DNA from: Filomicrobium sp.
GTDB lineage: Bacteria; Pseudomonadota; Alphaproteobacteria; Rhizobiales; Hyphomicrobiaceae
Assembly: GCA_017792465.1 (NCBI GenBank)
Contig: CP051234.1
Span: 2,760,501 to 2,824,500, forward strand
Reading direction: 5' to 3'
DNA: 64,000 nt
How positions within the stretch are numbered: the stretch's first letter is position 1; every line of letters starts with the position of its first letter. Below, piece by piece: positions 38,549 to 44,933 of this stretch. The notes beneath the pieces were generated by a model. That model was not told the origin of the DNA, made no database searches, and saw only the letters and a list, made by a program, of their open reading frames with translations. A program made the position numbers and the translations under genes.

Positions 38549-38983
<435 letters not shown>

Positions 38984-39006
38984 GTGGAAGTGGAGGGAAT
39001 CCGAAT

Positions 39007-40365
39007 ATGAAGTTTCTGAAGAACAACCTGAACCTGGGAATGGCCGCCATTACGGTTTTGGCCATCGCTACGGTTCCTGCATTGGCACAGGACGCAGCTG
39101 CTCCTGCAGTCGATAAAACTGCGGCGACCGCTGCAAACGTCGACTACGTCTTCAATACTCTGCTGTTCTTGATGGCAGGCTTCCTCGTGATGTTCATGGC
39201 TGCCGGCTTCGCCATGCTCGAAGCTGGTCTCGTGCGGACCAAGAACGTCGCGATGCAGTGCACCAAGAACATCGCACTTTACGCCATCGCCGGCCTGATG
39301 TTCTGGGCGATCGGCTACAACATGATGTACCCAGGCGACGATTGGATCGTTGCCGATATGGTCGGCAAGTTCCTGCCGGTCACTATGCCTGATCCTGCCG
39401 GTGATACGGCGAATGCCTATTCGGTCGGTTCGGACTGGTTCTTCCAGATGGTGTTCTGCGCAACGACCTGTTCGATCGTTTCGGGTACGCTTGCTGAGCG
39501 CATCAAGCTGTGGCCATTCCTCATCTTCTGCGTTGTTCTGACCGCTCTCATCTACCCGATCCAGGGTTCTTGGGAATGGGGTGCAGGCTGGCTCGACGAC
39601 ATGGGCTTCTCCGACTTCGCCGGTTCGACGCTCGTTCACTCGACTGGCGGTTGGGCTGCTCTTGCTGGTGCCCTCCTGCTTGGCGCACGTCACGGCAAAT
39701 ACGGTCCGAACGGTGAAATCCATCCGATGCCGGGTTCGTCGATGCCGCTGGCAACGCTTGGTACGTTCATCCTGTGGCTCGGCTGGTTCGGCTTCAACGG
39801 CGGTTCGCAGCTCGCACTCGGTACGCTTGAAAACGCTTCGGCTGTTTCCAAGATCTTCGTCAACACCAACATGGCTGCTTGTGCCGGTGTTGTTGTCGCA
39901 ATCATTCTGACCCAGGTCGTTTACGGCAAGGTCGACTTGACGATGGCTTTGAACGGCGCACTTGCCGGTCTGGTGTCGATCACGGCTGAACCTCTTACGC
40001 CAGCGATCTGGCAGGCCGTTGTCATCGGTGCTGTCGGTGGTGTGATCGTTGTCTTCACCGTTCCATTGCTCGACAAGATGCGTATCGACGACGTTGTCGG
40101 TGCTATTCCGGTTCACCTCCTCGCAGGTATCTGGGGCACTCTGATCGTCGCATGGACCAACGGCGATGCTAACGTCGTGACCCAGGCGATCGGCGTCGGT
40201 GCGATTGGTGCCTTCGTGTTCATTTCCAGCTTCGTGGTTTGGGCGTTCCTCAAATTCACGATTGGTCTTCGTCCGACCCTGGAAGAAGAAATCGAAGGTC
40301 TCGACAAGGCGGAAATCGGTATCGAAGCCTATCCGGAATTCGGAACCGGCAGCCAACGGATCTAA
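39007..40365 (+). CDS. amtB: Ammonium transporter
   Basis: A 452-residue trimeric ammonium channel: signal peptide to about residue 27 (ATVPALAQ), a short periplasmic linker, then eleven membrane spans. It includes ADFCATTCSIVSG-type text with the real FCATTCSIVSGTLAER, the DFAGSTLVHSTGGWAALAGALLLG block (first pore His), and AGIWGTLIVAWTNG near the second. The start at 39007 has GGAGGGAAT upstream. Co-transcribed with glnK and followed by a strong terminator. Confidence 0.97.
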   Translation: MKFLKNNLNLGMAAITVLAIATVPALAQDAAAPAVDKTAATAANVDYVFNTLLFLMAGFLVMFMAAGFAMLEAGLVRTKNVAMQCTKNIALYAIAGLMFWAIGYNMMYPGDDWIVADMVGKFLPVTMPDPAGDTANAYSVGSDWFFQMVFCATTCSIVSGTLAERIKLWPFLIFCVVLTALIYPIQGSWEWGAGWLDDMGFSDFAGSTLVHSTGGWAALAGALLLGARHGKYGPNGEIHPMPGSSMPLATLGTFILWLGWFGFNGGSQLALGTLENASAVSKIFVNTNMAACAGVVVAIILTQVVYGKVDLTMALNGALAGLVSITAEPLTPAIWQAVVIGAVGGVIVVFTVPLLDKMRIDDVVGAIPVHLLAGIWGTLIVAWTNGDANVVTQAIGVGAIGAFVFISSFVVWAFLKFTIGLRPTLEEEIEGLDKAEIGIEAYPEFGTGSQRI

Positions 40366-40836: not shown

Positions 40837-43782
40837 TTACTTGATGGCAAATTCGATGCGACGGTTGAGAGCCCGCGACTTGCGCGTTGCGTTGGATGCA
40901 ATCGGTTTGCTTTCACCGAAGCCAACTGCTTCCAGACGGGTCCGGCTGACGCCAGCGTTTGCGAGATATTCAAGGACCGACTGAGCACGTGCCTGGGAGA
41001 GTTTCATGTTGAGATCGCCCGAACCGACGCTGTCGGTGTGCCCTTCGATAATCAGGGCCGTTTCACCGCATGCATTGATCGTTTCGACGACCTTGTCGAG
41101 GATCGCATTCGAAGAGGGATCAAGTTCGGCGCTGTTGTTGCCAAACAGGATTGAGCGATTTCCAGAAAGCTTGCTCAGATCGTCCTTGCAGCTGTTCAAG
41201 CCGGCCGTGTTGGAGGGCGTTGCCTGACCAACGGCTGCAACCTTGACTGGCGTGCCGGCGTCGGCGTTTTGCCATTTGTCCCGCATGGCGAGATAATCGC
41301 TGAGGGTCGTGATGGTGCCCGTCGATCCGGTTACGATTGATGAGGTGCCGGCAAGGGTAGGCTCGGTGCCCCAGGAGGTGCGGGTTTCAAGCAGCGACTT
41401 GAGCGCATCGGAGAGTTTCGTTGGCGCGACAGATGCCACTTGCGGCAACGGACGAGCTTCGGCTTCGTGGACGATTGGCGGTTTGCCTTTCGGAGCGACG
41501 CGTGTTTTCGCAAGCTTCAGGCGGCGCGATGCACCCTTGGCGAGCGGAGCGCGGATTCGACGCGCACGCGGGCCTGTGCCCCAGGCGTCACGGCGAGCGA
41601 AATAGCGGTTCAGGTCGCCAGCAAAGCGAGTCCCGCTGAGGGAAGGTTCGGTTCCCCAGTTGCCGCGCGTTGCCAGAAGTTCTTTCATTGCCGTCGTGAT
41701 CGTTGCACTGTCGACAGCAGTCGGAGCTGGCAGCGGAGTCGCCGGCGTCTCGTTGATGATGACGGGTTTCTGATCTGCCACCGGAGCGGCCTTAACCAGC
41801 TTCAGTTTGCGTGAGGCGCCTTTGGCAAGCGGTGCTCTGATAGGCTTGGCTTTCGGGCCTGCGCCCCAGCGATCGCGGCGTGCCATGAAGGCGTTCAAAT
41901 CGCCAGCGACACGAGCTTCGCTGATGACCGGGGCAGAACCCCAGCCTTCTCTTGCTGCCAGCAGATCTGACAGAGAAGCCGTGATGGCGCTGGCCGAAAC
42001 CGGCGTCAACTGCGGCAGCGGACGCTCTTCGGTTTCGTTGATGATCGTTGGCTTGCCGCCGGCTTTTGGAGCGGCTTTGGCGAGCTTGAGTTTGCGGGAA
42101 GCGCCCGCAGCAAGTGGTGCTTTGACCGGTTTAGCCTTGGGGCCGTTGCCCCATGCTTCGCGGCGGGCGATGTAGCGGTCGAGATCGCCAGCGAAGCGTG
42201 CCGAGCTCAGTTTCGGTTCGCTTCCCCAGCCTTCGCGGGTGGCCAATAGCTCGGTCAGTGCCGTTTGGATGCTGTCATTTGAGACAGCGCTGACGGCTGG
42301 CATCGGGAGGGCGCCAGCATCATTGATGATCGGTGCGGCGTCGCTGCCTTGGGATGCGACAGCCGCTGCAAGGGCGAGCTTGCGTGATGCGCCGGCAGCA
42401 AGCGGTGCTGCAACGGCTTTCGGCTCCGGTCCCTGGCCCCAACGTTCACGGCGCTCAATGTAGCTTGCGAGGTTCCCGGTCACGGTGCTCTGCGCAACGG
42501 TAGGCTCGGTGCCCCATGCGGCACGCTCATCCAACAGTGCGTTGCGTGCACGTACGATGTCGGCCTGGGAGACGAGCGATGGCTTGGGCAGTGGTGGATC
42601 TTCGTATTCGTTGACGATGGTGTCGGCGGCCGGTCCGGGTGCGACAGCCGGTGCCTGGGCCTGGACGAAACGTTCAGGTGCGCCGGCTGCCAAAGGTGCC
42701 GCGATGGCGGTTGCTGCCGGACCGGTTCCCCAGCTGTCACGCTGTGCGAGGAAGTCGGTCAGCGAGGCCGTTCCCAAGATCGTCATCGGAGTTTCGATCT
42801 TCAGCGCGCCTGAGCGGTAGGATTTGGCAGGCTCCGAACCCCAGCTCTCACGCGTTTTGAAAAGGTCCGACAGAGCATTGCCGATGCTTTCGCCCGATGG
42901 TGCCGCATCTTGCGCGCTTGCAGCCTTTGTCGCCGAAGTTTCGGCTTCGGGTGCCGAGCTTTGTTTCCAGCTATCACGGATTTCAAAGTACTTTTTGAGG
43001 TTGCCGGTGCCTTCGAGCGTCGGGTTGTCGGAAGCACCTGCAGCGGCTGCAGGAGTTTCTGATGGGGCCTCAGACGGTGCGGCCGAGCCGGACGTCCAGG
43101 ATTCGCGTTCGGAGAACAGTCCGGAGAGCGCGTTGTCAATCTCATCCTTGGGAACTGCGGTGAGTTCCGGCAAAGCGCGCTCTTCCTGCTTGATGGGTTC
43201 GACAGCGTTGGTCTCAGGGAAGGGGATGGCTTCGAGTTTGGGAAGCGGGGAAACGGCGCCACTGGCGAGCGGTGCCTTGACGTCGTGGCCTTCCCCGGTG
43301 CCCCAGCCTTCGCGCGTCTTGAAGTAGTCTTCCAGCGAGGTCACTGAAAGGGCGATGGTCGCATTGTTGGAAGCGTCGCCGGCGGCTGGCGCATCAGCCT
43401 TCTCTTCAGCTGCCTTTTCGGCCCCATTCTCGGGCTTTTTCTCTGCTTCCGTCTCGGGCTTCTTTTCAGGCTTTTTGTAGCCGAGAAGCTCGTTGATGTA
43501 GTCTTGAAGGAGCGTCTGCAGGTCTTTTTGCTTTTCGGCTTCGGCGAGCTCGATAAAGCCATCCCTATCGCCGGATTCGGCGACTGCGAATTCCAGGCCT
43601 GTGACCGGCTTGTAGCCTGTCAGGCTGTCTGCACGCTGAACATTTCGTCGTGAAGAGCAAGAGACTAGTGAACTCGTCGATTTGCAAAACTTGCCCAACG
43701 TCAGGGTCGTGTGCGGGAAATCCGCAGCGGCGGGAGCTGACAGGGCGCAGCACAAGCCGACAAATAGGGTTGTACGCATCAT
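40837..43782 (-). CDS. Large secreted OmpA-domain protein with 15 alternating R-x-x-W repeats
   Basis: A 981-residue envelope protein. A signal peptide (CCALSAPAAA, cut near residue 20) is followed by a Lys/Glu/Ala-rich low-complexity part (about 95-140). About 700 residues of internal repeats come next, then a C-terminal OmpA peptidoglycan-binding domain (SILFGNNSAELDPSS, IIEGHTDSVGSGDLNMKLSQ, RALNRRIEFAI). The repeats are short helices ending in R-x-x-W-(G), 15 in all. They alternate strictly between type B (LxxYxxRRxxWGxGP) and type A (ALxxLLxxRxxWGxEP). Type B is followed by an APLAxGASRKLKLAK linker, then by PLPxxTxV before type A. The ATG at 43782 follows GGAGGA. Function unknown; likely anchored to the cell wall. 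Confidence 0.85.
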   Translation of the reverse strand: MMRTTLFVGLCCALSAPAAADFPHTTLTLGKFCKSTSSLVSCSSRRNVQRADSLTGYKPVTGLEFAVAESGDRDGFIELAEAEKQKDLQTLLQDYINELLGYKKPEKKPETEAEKKPENGAEKAAEEKADAPAAGDASNNATIALSVTSLEDYFKTREGWGTGEGHDVKAPLASGAVSPLPKLEAIPFPETNAVEPIKQEERALPELTAVPKDEIDNALSGLFSERESWTSGSAAPSEAPSETPAAAAGASDNPTLEGTGNLKKYFEIRDSWKQSSAPEAETSATKAASAQDAAPSGESIGNALSDLFKTRESWGSEPAKSYRSGALKIETPMTILGTASLTDFLAQRDSWGTGPAATAIAAPLAAGAPERFVQAQAPAVAPGPAADTIVNEYEDPPLPKPSLVSQADIVRARNALLDERAAWGTEPTVAQSTVTGNLASYIERRERWGQGPEPKAVAAPLAAGASRKLALAAAVASQGSDAAPIINDAGALPMPAVSAVSNDSIQTALTELLATREGWGSEPKLSSARFAGDLDRYIARREAWGNGPKAKPVKAPLAAGASRKLKLAKAAPKAGGKPTIINETEERPLPQLTPVSASAITASLSDLLAAREGWGSAPVISEARVAGDLNAFMARRDRWGAGPKAKPIRAPLAKGASRKLKLVKAAPVADQKPVIINETPATPLPAPTAVDSATITTAMKELLATRGNWGTEPSLSGTRFAGDLNRYFARRDAWGTGPRARRIRAPLAKGASRRLKLAKTRVAPKGKPPIVHEAEARPLPQVASVAPTKLSDALKSLLETRTSWGTEPTLAGTSSIVTGSTGTITTLSDYLAMRDKWQNADAGTPVKVAAVGQATPSNTAGLNSCKDDLSKLSGNRSILFGNNSAELDPSSNAILDKVVETINACGETALIIEGHTDSVGSGDLNMKLSQARAQSVLEYLANAGVSRTRLEAVGFGESKPIASNATRKSRALNRRIEFAIK
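41260..43330 (-). repeat. Coding repeats of the alternating R-x-x-W protein
   Basis: The part of the gene that encodes the 15 R-x-x-W motifs. The best-conserved section (about 41330-42480) holds four units of roughly 330 bases, each with one type A motif, one type B motif and the APLA(A/K)GASR(K/R)LKL linker. These units are alike also at DNA level, for instance in recurring CCCCAGCCTTC and CGGCGGGCG-like stretches. The N-terminal units are more diverged. Confidence 0.75.
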
Positions 43783-44129
43783 ACCTTGGTGTCCTCCAAT
43801 TACATTACGGCATTTATGACTCCGGTTACCTTAATTTTTGGTGTCGGAACGCCCCTCTATGAGTTTGACTCGCTTAGTTTTTTTAGGCGTTCGCTGTTAG
43901 GCCTCCCGAAATGCCGTGTGGCAAGCCGTGCAATCGGTGACGGATACACGCATCGCTTTCGTCGAGTGCAAATGGCACAATCGCCGCGTTTGCAGGATCA
44001 ACTTGAGCTTCATCGTTGCACAGCCATGCAAATGATCTACATTTTGCAAAGAGTTAAGACAACAGGGGAAAGACTTGTCCAACCCTTTCGCGATAACAAC
44101 GCAACGGATAATTGCGGCAGATTGAGCAC
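43783..44129. other. Divergent gap between the OmpA-repeat gene and map
   Basis: About 350 bases with no supported gene, hairpin or repeat. It carries the GGAGGA ribosome-binding site of the minus-strand gene at about 43792-43797 and must contain promoters for both directions. An apparent plus-strand frame here has no family resemblance. Confidence 0.45.
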
Positions 44130-44933
44130 ATGAATTCAAAACACAAAGAAAGAGGCATTACTCTGTACGGAGAGGAAGGCTTTGCGGGCATGCGGAAGGC
44201 TGGGAGCCTGGCCGCGGCAGCCTTGGACTTGATGGTCGAGCATGTGAAGCCCGGGGTCACCACCGACGAGCTTGATGACATCATCATGGATTTTGCGAAG
44301 GCCAACGATGCTATTCCGGCAACGCTGAACTATCGCGGATACACCAAGGCGATCTGTACTTCGGTGAACCATGTGGTCTGCCATGGCATTCCAGGTCCGA
44401 AGCCGTTGCGCGAAGGCGATATCGTCAATATCGACGTGACGCTGATTGTCGACGGATGGCATGGCGATACGAGCCGCATGTACGGTGTCGGTGAGATCCC
44501 GCGCAAGGCGGAGCGGCTTCTCGATGTCACGTATGAAGCGCTGATGCGAGGTATTGCAGCCGTCAAGCCTGGACATACGACCGGCCATATCGGCGCAGCG
44601 ATCCAGAACTTTGCCGAGGCTGAGCGCTGTAGTGTCGTGCGGGAATTTTGCGGGCATGGATTGGGCCGCCAATTCCACGAACGGCCGAATATTCTGCACT
44701 ATGGTGTCGAAGGCGAAGGGGTTGAACTGAAGCCGGGGATGATTTTCACGATCGAGCCGATGATAAATATCGGGAAGGCGGCAGTGAAGGTCCTGCCGGA
44801 TGGCTGGACGGCCGTGACCCGGGACCGGCAGCTGTCGGCCCAGTTCGAGCATTCCGTTGGCGTGACGGAAGAAGGCTGCGAGATTTTCACGCGGTCTTTG
44901 AAAGGATACGATCGACCGCCCTATCTTGGCTGA
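44130..44933 (+). CDS. map: Methionine aminopeptidase, type I
   Basis: Removes the initiator Met from nascent proteins. It has 267 residues. The metal-binding residues are in NIDVTLIVDGWHGDTSRMY (two Asp), CGHGLGRQFHERPNILHYG (His) and MIFTIEPMIN (Glu), with the last Glu in AQFEHSVGVTEEG. The ATG at 44130 is preferred over a TTG at 44112. Followed after about 60 bases by radC, an order seen in other Rhizobiales. Confidence 0.97.
   Translation: MNSKHKERGITLYGEEGFAGMRKAGSLAAAALDLMVEHVKPGVTTDELDDIIMDFAKANDAIPATLNYRGYTKAICTSVNHVVCHGIPGPKPLREGDIVNIDVTLIVDGWHGDTSRMYGVGEIPRKAERLLDVTYEALMRGIAAVKPGHTTGHIGAAIQNFAEAERCSVVREFCGHGLGRQFHERPNILHYGVEGEGVELKPGMIFTIEPMINIGKAAVKVLPDGWTAVTRDRQLSAQFEHSVGVTEEGCEIFTRSLKGYDRPPYLG

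What the first reader, a model, noticed from the sequence alone, without database searches (positions are those of the whole stretch)
40837..43782. OmpA-domain protein built of 15 strictly alternating R-x-x-W helices
Every repeat ends in R-x-x-W, and the two flavours (B: Y-x-x-R-R-x-x-W-G-x-G-P; A: L-L-x-x-R-x-x-W-G-x-E-P) alternate without a break, starting and ending with B. Linkers also alternate: APLAxGASRKLKLAK after most B motifs, PLPxxTxV before A. Followed by a peptidoglycan-binding OmpA domain and led by a signal peptide. I know no described family with this design. It could be a cell-wall-spanning ruler, a binding array, or a polar or stalk structure.
Basis: partly seen in the sequence, partly recalled or inferred. 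Interest (0 to 1): 0.8.

Follow-up and report, generated by a model that had tools for sequence, protein, structure and literature searches.

The report
Peptidoglycan-anchored array of secreted R-x-x-W helices
A bacterium makes an exported protein that carries fifteen copies of one short helical motif in front of a cell-wall-binding domain, and the same motif turns up in several other small exported proteins of its close relatives, so it is probably a docking tag for an unknown envelope partner.

Summary
The minus-strand ORF 40837-43782 encodes 981 aa: a signal-peptide-like start, 15 R-x-x-W helices alternating B-A without a break, and a C-terminal OmpA domain. All 15 tryptophans lie in R-x-x-W; 20,000 shuffles never gave more than six.

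The repeating unit is one ~95-aa B...A module. Over 13 array proteins (window included), B-to-A spacing is 70-71 residues in 40 of 51 pairs, while A-to-B spacing runs from 25 to 61. Alternation is unbroken in 7 of 13 and broken only within the first four motifs in six. Complete OmpA-bearing arrays hold 6 to 15 motifs, which argues against a ruler.

The module matches no Pfam, NCBIfam or PDB entry convincingly. It occurs in 11 of 103 genomes of the family, in two of 25 genera.

The new point: the same helix occurs in exported-looking proteins without OmpA: one-motif mini-proteins, basic-tailed proteins with 2-4 motifs, and one dense array. The helix is thus portable, not a spacer. I favour a peptidoglycan-anchored multivalent docking array; the partner is unknown and the mechanism inferred.

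The parts
40837..43782 (-). whole gene, 981 aa, ATG start; divergent from a map-like gene (metAP, 44112-44933 +), convergent with an amtB-like gene (38980-40365 +)
   Evidence: synteny (gene names recalled from the look of the translations)
43723..43782 (-). signal peptide, residues 1-20, likely cleavage after APAAA, no lipobox seen
   Evidence: read by eye from the translation; no signal-peptide program was run
43348..43722 (-). N-terminal segment, residues 21-145, with a further helix-like stretch (DLQTLLQDYINELLG) that has counterparts in G002, G003 and G008; K/E-rich linker
   Evidence: read by eye
43081..43347 (-). module 1 (B160 to A229)
   Evidence: profile 85.9 bits
42826..43011 (-). 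degenerate module 2 (B272 to A314, spacing 42, middle part lost)
   Evidence: 5.8 and 17.7 bits for its halves
42499..42774 (-). module 3 (B351 to A423), positionally conserved SQADIVRARNALL type
   Evidence: 5-row clade 99/91
42211..42483 (-). module 4 (B448 to A519)
41926..42195 (-). module 5 (B544 to A614)
41641..41910 (-). module 6 (B639 to A709)
41356..41625 (-). module 7 (B734 to A804)
41257..41316 (-). final single B helix (B837)
   Evidence: 6.5 bits
40861..41148 (-). OmpA domain (PF00691), residues 879-974, with the GHTD-x14-R spacing and LSxxRA

Best explanation
An exported, peptidoglycan-anchored multivalent docking array. Shown by sequence: a signal-peptide-like start, an OmpA domain with the usual contact residues in place, and modules whose best conserved residues are those of a short amphipathic helix (hydrophobic at -10/-7/-6, R at -3, usually E/D at -2, W at 0, G at +1). 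The two helices of each module are separated by a near-constant stretch that is mostly predicted as coil. Inferred: the OmpA domain holds the protein on the cell wall while the flexible arm displays up to 15 helices, each docking on the same envelope partner (protein or assembly). The one-motif mini-proteins and the basic-tailed proteins of the same two genera would use the same helix to reach, or compete for, that partner. Copy number sets avidity, so it can drift between species. The partner and the physiological role are not known.
For: The same helix occurs in four exported-looking architectures within two genera of one family: OmpA-anchored arrays, basic-tailed proteins with 2-4 motifs, one-motif mini-proteins, and, in one genome, a dense frame with nine profile hits. 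At E <= 1e-6, 11 of 13 genomes of the two genera have at least one 30-position match outside the OmpA arrays, as do 9 of 9 genomes with at least 90% completeness and at most 5% contamination; the misses are G004 and G006, 70% and 67% complete. In 46 near-full modules (of 71 profile hits, 25 partial ones left out) R, W and G of the B helix and L and R of the A helix are identical in 46 of 46, and W of the A helix in 45 of 46, while the DNA copies are 61-75% identical: selection on the helix. R was never replaced by K in these modules, and mean helix net charges are near zero (-0.05 for A, n 57; +0.49 for B, n 65), which points to specific docking rather than generic charge. Both AlphaFold2 runs place helices at the A and B motifs with mostly coil between. 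GHTD-x14-R and LSxxRA are kept in 12 of 13 array proteins; the thirteenth (G005b) has no OmpA domain.
Against: No partner was found; the neighbours of mini-proteins that I read look like housekeeping genes. The near-constant 70-71-residue B-to-A distance and the conserved APLAxGA and I(V/I)(N/H)...P.P segments are more than a bare sticker-and-spacer chain needs. Seed rows were picked with an R..W pattern (Y allowed in place of W), so part of the R/W conservation is by construction. B helices are only moderately amphipathic against shuffles (mean percentile 0.70; A 0.88). Export of the proteins without OmpA rests on signal peptides judged by eye.
Confidence: 0.5

Rival explanations
1. Tandem folded domains: the ~87-residue B...A stretch is one small domain in which the two R-x-x-W helices pack on each other, and the protein is a string of beads that reaches out from the cell wall.
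For: B-to-A spacing 69-75 in 45 of 51 pairs against 25-61 for 48 A-to-B pairs; conserved non-helical segments inside the module; the A half keeps its length in 24 of 25 rows inspected (by eye).
Against: AlphaFold2 gives separated helices, mostly coil between and pTM 0.19 / 0.26, though on shallow alignments; the B helix occurs without an A partner in mini-proteins and basic-tailed proteins; 6 of 51 B-to-A pairs have other spacings; no match to a solved structure by sequence.
Confidence: 0.22
2. Membrane-binding amphipathic helices: the array lies on the outer or inner membrane and ties it to the peptidoglycan, a substitute for other envelope tethers.
For: Amphipathic helices with a terminal W; OmpA anchor; basic tails in related proteins could bind anionic lipids or LPS.
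Against: Mean helix net charge near zero, E/D at -2 in 38 of 57 A and 57 of 65 B helices, and R, never K, at -3 in 46 of 46 near-full modules: unusual for a lipid-binding helix.
Confidence: 0.15
3. Passive spacer or cell-wall ruler: only length matters.
For: Four genomes of genus g11 have OmpA proteins at the same place beside map with other spacers, in two of them (G018, G072) an Ala/Glu/Lys-rich stretch.
Against: 6-15 motifs and frames of 442-1004 residues in the complete OmpA-bearing arrays; the motif also occurs in mini-proteins that consist of little else; the g11 proteins also carry their own W motif, one to four copies.
Confidence: 0.06

Closest known systems
OmpA-family peptidoglycan-associated proteins (PF00691: Pal, YiaD, YfiB, Rv0899)
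   Same: C-terminal OmpA domain, significant in Pfam and in the PDB sequence search; GHTD-x14-R and LSxxRA kept; signal-peptide-like start.
   Different: An array of R-x-x-W modules of about 700 residues in front and no lipobox seen; below the curated cut-off of each of the 25 NCBIfam models shown of 41.
EPYC1 / PYCO1 Rubisco linkers (repeat proteins with sticker motifs; PMC10288592, abstract and start of the introduction seen; PMC9614477, passages seen)
   Same: Works-like comparison only: a short motif repeated in a flexible protein and present in other proteins; in Chlamydomonas a Rubisco-binding motif can localise proteins to the pyrenoid matrix.
   Different: No sequence relation claimed; chloroplast systems with a known partner; here the partner is unknown and a cell-wall-type anchor is attached.
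map-adjacent OmpA proteins of genus g11 (same family as the window's genome)
   Same: Same place, divergent from map; OmpA domain; W-containing motif (PWAxxAxxNPxY-like) in one to four copies.
   Different: The W motif is a different sequence; no R-x-x-W array.
EspF repeat (PF04806)
   Same: One of 25 module rows, E 0.025.
   Different: Below the gathering score where one was printed (10.7 vs 20.2 bits, E 0.74, in the G005 array protein); treated as chance.

Membership tests
OmpA family (PF00691) | OmpA domain above the Pfam gathering score | tested here: met
   78.2 bits vs cut-off 27.2, residues 879-974
OmpA family (PF00691) | peptidoglycan-contact Asp and Arg 15 residues apart (recalled from OmpA structures) | tested here: met
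   GHTD-x14-R in the window protein and in 12 of 13 array proteins in all; the thirteenth, G005b, has no OmpA domain
OmpA family (PF00691) | actual binding to peptidoglycan | not testable with these tools
   sequence only
any described repeat family | convincing match of the R-x-x-W module to a Pfam-A or NCBIfam model | tested here: not met
   25 module rows: best E 0.025 in Pfam (one row) and 0.11 in NCBIfam (one row); whole protein: OmpA plus one E 0.26 match in Pfam; in NCBIfam the 25 models shown of 41 all match the OmpA end
any solved fold | sequence-profile match in the PDB | tested here: not met
   best E 1.5; folds themselves were not searched because both models were poor
sticker-and-spacer scaffold (EPYC1-like, works-like only) | many copies of a short helical motif in a flexible chain | tested here: inconclusive
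   copies and helix prediction yes; flexibility rests on low-confidence models
sticker-and-spacer scaffold (EPYC1-like, works-like only) | a partner that binds the motif; condensation | not testable with these tools
   no partner found

The most novel reading that the evidence does not exclude
The R-x-x-W-G helix is a lineage-specific extracytoplasmic address motif: a small set of exported proteins (cell-wall-anchored long arrays, basic-tailed arrays and monovalent mini-proteins) all carry it and are brought together by one hub, forming a cross-linked or condensate-like layer in the periplasm of these bacteria, with copy number tuned per species.
Probability: 0.25. Interest if true: 0.82.

Novelty: new variant of a known kind. 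Interest (0 to 1): 0.55.

Why it matters
Shared short helical motifs that organise sets of proteins are known from intracellular systems such as the pyrenoid. A periplasmic set built on one motif, with a cell-wall-anchored multivalent member and a monovalent mini-protein of about 30-45 mature residues, would be a compact natural system for studying multivalency outside the cytoplasm. It is directly testable: the mini-protein is nearly the bare motif and can serve as bait. It also gives boundaries to a protein family that the family libraries searched here (Pfam-A, NCBIfam) do not recognise.

Tried and rejected
Chance repeats: rejected by shuffles. Recent DNA-level tandem duplication in the window gene: rejected, no TRF array and 61-75% identity of the reported copies; some homologues do hold close copies (G003, G005a). 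Ruler: rejected on copy-number variation. Wider distribution: at E <= 0.01, 6 of 397 genomes of the order, three of them genus g1; the other three (G127, G140, G385) score E about 0.003 on 93-165-residue frames, one with a stop, and are taken as chance. At E <= 0.001, 1 of 385 of the class and 1 of 398 of the phylum, the window's own genome only. In these three searches at most 13 first-look candidates per genome were scored, so weak or buried copies could be missed. Absence in G001 and G006 (same genus): G001's assembly gave no map match and G006's map starts 230 bases from a contig end, so the locus is probably unassembled rather than lost. Other OmpA proteins from the whole-protein search whose frames I printed carry other repeats (BON-like is recalled, not tested) and were dropped. 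Literature: five searches aimed at this family listed nothing that describes it; titles and abstract starts only, and one search had no hit at all. Two more were for the EPYC1 comparison. Papers seen: PMC10288592 (abstract and start of the introduction) and PMC9614477 (passages). Fold search was not used because both models had pTM below 0.3. Rows dropped or mended before counts: the R-x-x-W at residue 75 of G002 lies outside the array and was left out of the motif strings; those strings were typed by eye, with one G008 motif (421) that the automatic rule had misread as A put back as B, and with one G007b R-x-x-Y helix counted as A. The spacing counts and the helix counts still carry the automatic classes. 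G005b is counted among the 13 array proteins although it has no OmpA domain.

Full report
Observation. The minus-strand ORF at 40837-43782 translates to 981 aa with a signal-peptide-like start (judged by eye) and a C-terminal OmpA domain. It holds 15 tryptophans and each is part of R-x-x-W; 20,000 shuffles of the protein gave at most six R-x-x-W. Classed by the residues in front of R-x-x-W, the order is BABABABABABABAB. The 15 conserved arginines use four codons, TRF finds no DNA tandem array, and the DNA copies that the repeat finder reports are 61-75% identical, mostly at 285-nt spacing. The regularity is thus kept at the protein level.

What the unit is. I worked with 13 array proteins, the window's included, from 11 genomes: G000, G002, G003, G004 (cut by a contig end), G005 (two), G007 (two, adjacent), G008, G096, G097, G098, G099. 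One of them, G005b, has no OmpA domain. By automatic classing, the distance from the W of a B helix to the W of the following A helix is 70 or 71 in 40 of 51 pairs and 69-75 in 45 of 51; the other six are 42-64 or 79. The distance from A to the next B is 25 in 21 of 48 pairs and otherwise 26-61. One G008 motif is misclassed there. The natural unit is therefore one B...A module, about 87 residues from helix to helix, with the A-to-B stretch as the variable linker. Alternation is unbroken in 7 of 13 array proteins; in the other six (G002, G003, G007b, G008, G096, G099) the breaks lie within the first four motifs. Six of 13 end with B (strings set by eye).

Conservation. A 90-position profile from 25 modules (A2) gives 71 hits in the 13 proteins, 46 of them near-full. 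In these 46, R, W and G of B, a G in APLAxGA, and L and R of A are identical in 46 of 46, and W of A in 45 of 46 (one Y). The seed rows were chosen with an R..W pattern (Y allowed), so this is partly by construction. A tree of 45 modules shows one positionally conserved module, the SQADIVRARNALL type, in five proteins (99/91 support), while other modules group within genomes, for example in G003 and G005.

Distribution. Modules occur in 11 of 103 genomes of the family, in 2 of 25 genera: 7 of 9 in g1, and four in g34, with no g34 genome among the listed misses though that list was cut. In the two g1 misses the locus is probably unassembled. Beyond the family nothing convincing was found: three weak matches among 397 genomes of the order, and only the window's own genome among 385 of the class and 398 of the phylum; at most 13 candidates per genome were scored there. 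There is no convincing match to Pfam, NCBIfam or PDB for the module (best E 0.025, 0.11 and 1.5).

Locus. The gene is divergent from a methionine-aminopeptidase-like gene (map) followed by a radC-like gene in g1 and g34 genomes where the stretch was seen. Of 41 genomes with a map hit, I fetched 20 from other genera (one stretch shortened by a contig end); an OmpA protein next to map was found in one, G018 of genus g11. Three more g11 genomes, picked because they gave an OmpA hit, also have it: G066, G072, G073. These g11 proteins have another W-containing motif, PWAxxAxxNPxY-like, in one to four copies counted by eye.

The motif is portable. Profile searches with the single helix found further exported-looking proteins without OmpA in the same two genera. 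First, one-motif mini-proteins, a signal peptide (by eye) plus about 30-45 residues of the type VAGRPALTTKSxxELIxQREKWGTxP: read in G000, G001 (frame without a start codon in view), G002 (two), G003, G005, G008, G096, G098 and G099, with a further 77-residue frame in G007 that I did not read. Second, proteins with two or three motifs and a tail with 15-19 K/R in the last 40 residues, in G096, G097 (two) and G099; a frame cut by a contig end in G098 may be another; and G005b with four motifs and 13 K/R. Third, in G005 a 268-residue frame with nine head-to-tail profile hits. A search with the OmpA end finds none in the fetched stretches around the second and third classes; around the mini-proteins it finds one, a weak match 2.5 kb from that of G000. 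In all, 11 of 13 genomes of the two genera have a match at E <= 1e-6 outside the OmpA arrays; g34 genomes also show such matches inside them. The two misses are the 70% and 67% complete assemblies. In the order search, matches below E 1e-13 came from three g1 genomes of 397; the other seven genomes listed had E above 0.007. In a looser family search with the 21-position profile (E <= 0.5) 65 of 103 genomes gave some match; every one listed outside g1 and g34 had E above 0.015, which is what chance would give with so short a model.

Structure. AlphaFold2 with window sequences only gave helices at A and B and mostly coil between: A-B-A-B, four rows, pLDDT 63.7, pTM 0.19, with one more short helix at residues 64-70 where confidence is about 50; B...A, six rows, pLDDT 69.5, pTM 0.26, residues 61-80 with helix A at 84-89. 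These are shallow alignments, so a fold is not excluded. The helices have hydrophobic residues at -10, -7 and -6, R at -3, E or D at -2 in 38 of 57 A and 57 of 65 B helices, and W at 0. Mean net charge is -0.05 (A) and +0.49 (B); the hydrophobic moment lies on average at the 88th and 70th percentile of shuffles.

Mechanism. Shown: OmpA domain with the usual contact residues, a signal-peptide-like start, and a conserved amphipathic helix motif in several exported-looking architectures. Inferred: OmpA holds the arm on the cell wall, and the helices dock many times on one partner. The mini-proteins are the strongest argument that the helix, and not the length, is what matters. The near-constant B-to-A distance is the strongest argument for the bead-domain rival. 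I put the docking array at 0.5, the bead domain at 0.22, membrane binding at 0.15 and a spacer at 0.06; the rest is unassigned.

Relation to known systems. It is a member of the OmpA family by its C-terminal domain. The array has no described family in the libraries searched. It works most like repeat proteins with shared short stickers, such as EPYC1 and PYCO1; no relation by descent is claimed.

Noticed in passing
L114, L130, L131, L132 (genus g11, beside map): OmpA proteins at the same locus with a different W motif, PWAxxAxxNPxY-like, in two of them (L130, L132) with TSYYG/TSFYG-like stretches in front: a second lineage-specific motif at the same place.
   Followed up: partly
L167 5922-6182 (-), G000:C1 about 2402421-2402681: The window genome's own one-motif mini-protein lies beside a radical-SAM-like ORF that resembles pqqE (PLQCPYC, recalled) and about 2.5 kb from a weak OmpA match; its neighbourhood is not shared with the mini-proteins of the five other g1 genomes compared.
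   Followed up: partly
L175 1967-2770 (-) (G005): 268-residue exported-looking frame with nine head-to-tail YLARRxAW-type profile hits and a mildly basic tail, no OmpA.
   Followed up: partly
L061 7910-9535 and 9700-11676 (+) (G007): Two adjacent array genes in one genome; the first has an N-terminal segment like that of genus g34 (W..I..IC...C..LE, by eye).
   Followed up: no
L071 948-3464 and 3756-6845 (-) (G000:C1 about 4268947-4274844): 839-residue ORF with several tandem RIxGID...GVxSYxQIxKW...GRVxRENW repeats next to a 1030-residue OmpA ORF.
   Followed up: no
window 41356-42483: B helices seem to alternate a second time: FAGDLxRYxARRxAW and VAGDLxAFxARRDRW types take turns in the window and in some homologues (by eye), but the module tree does not group them by type.
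   Followed up: partly
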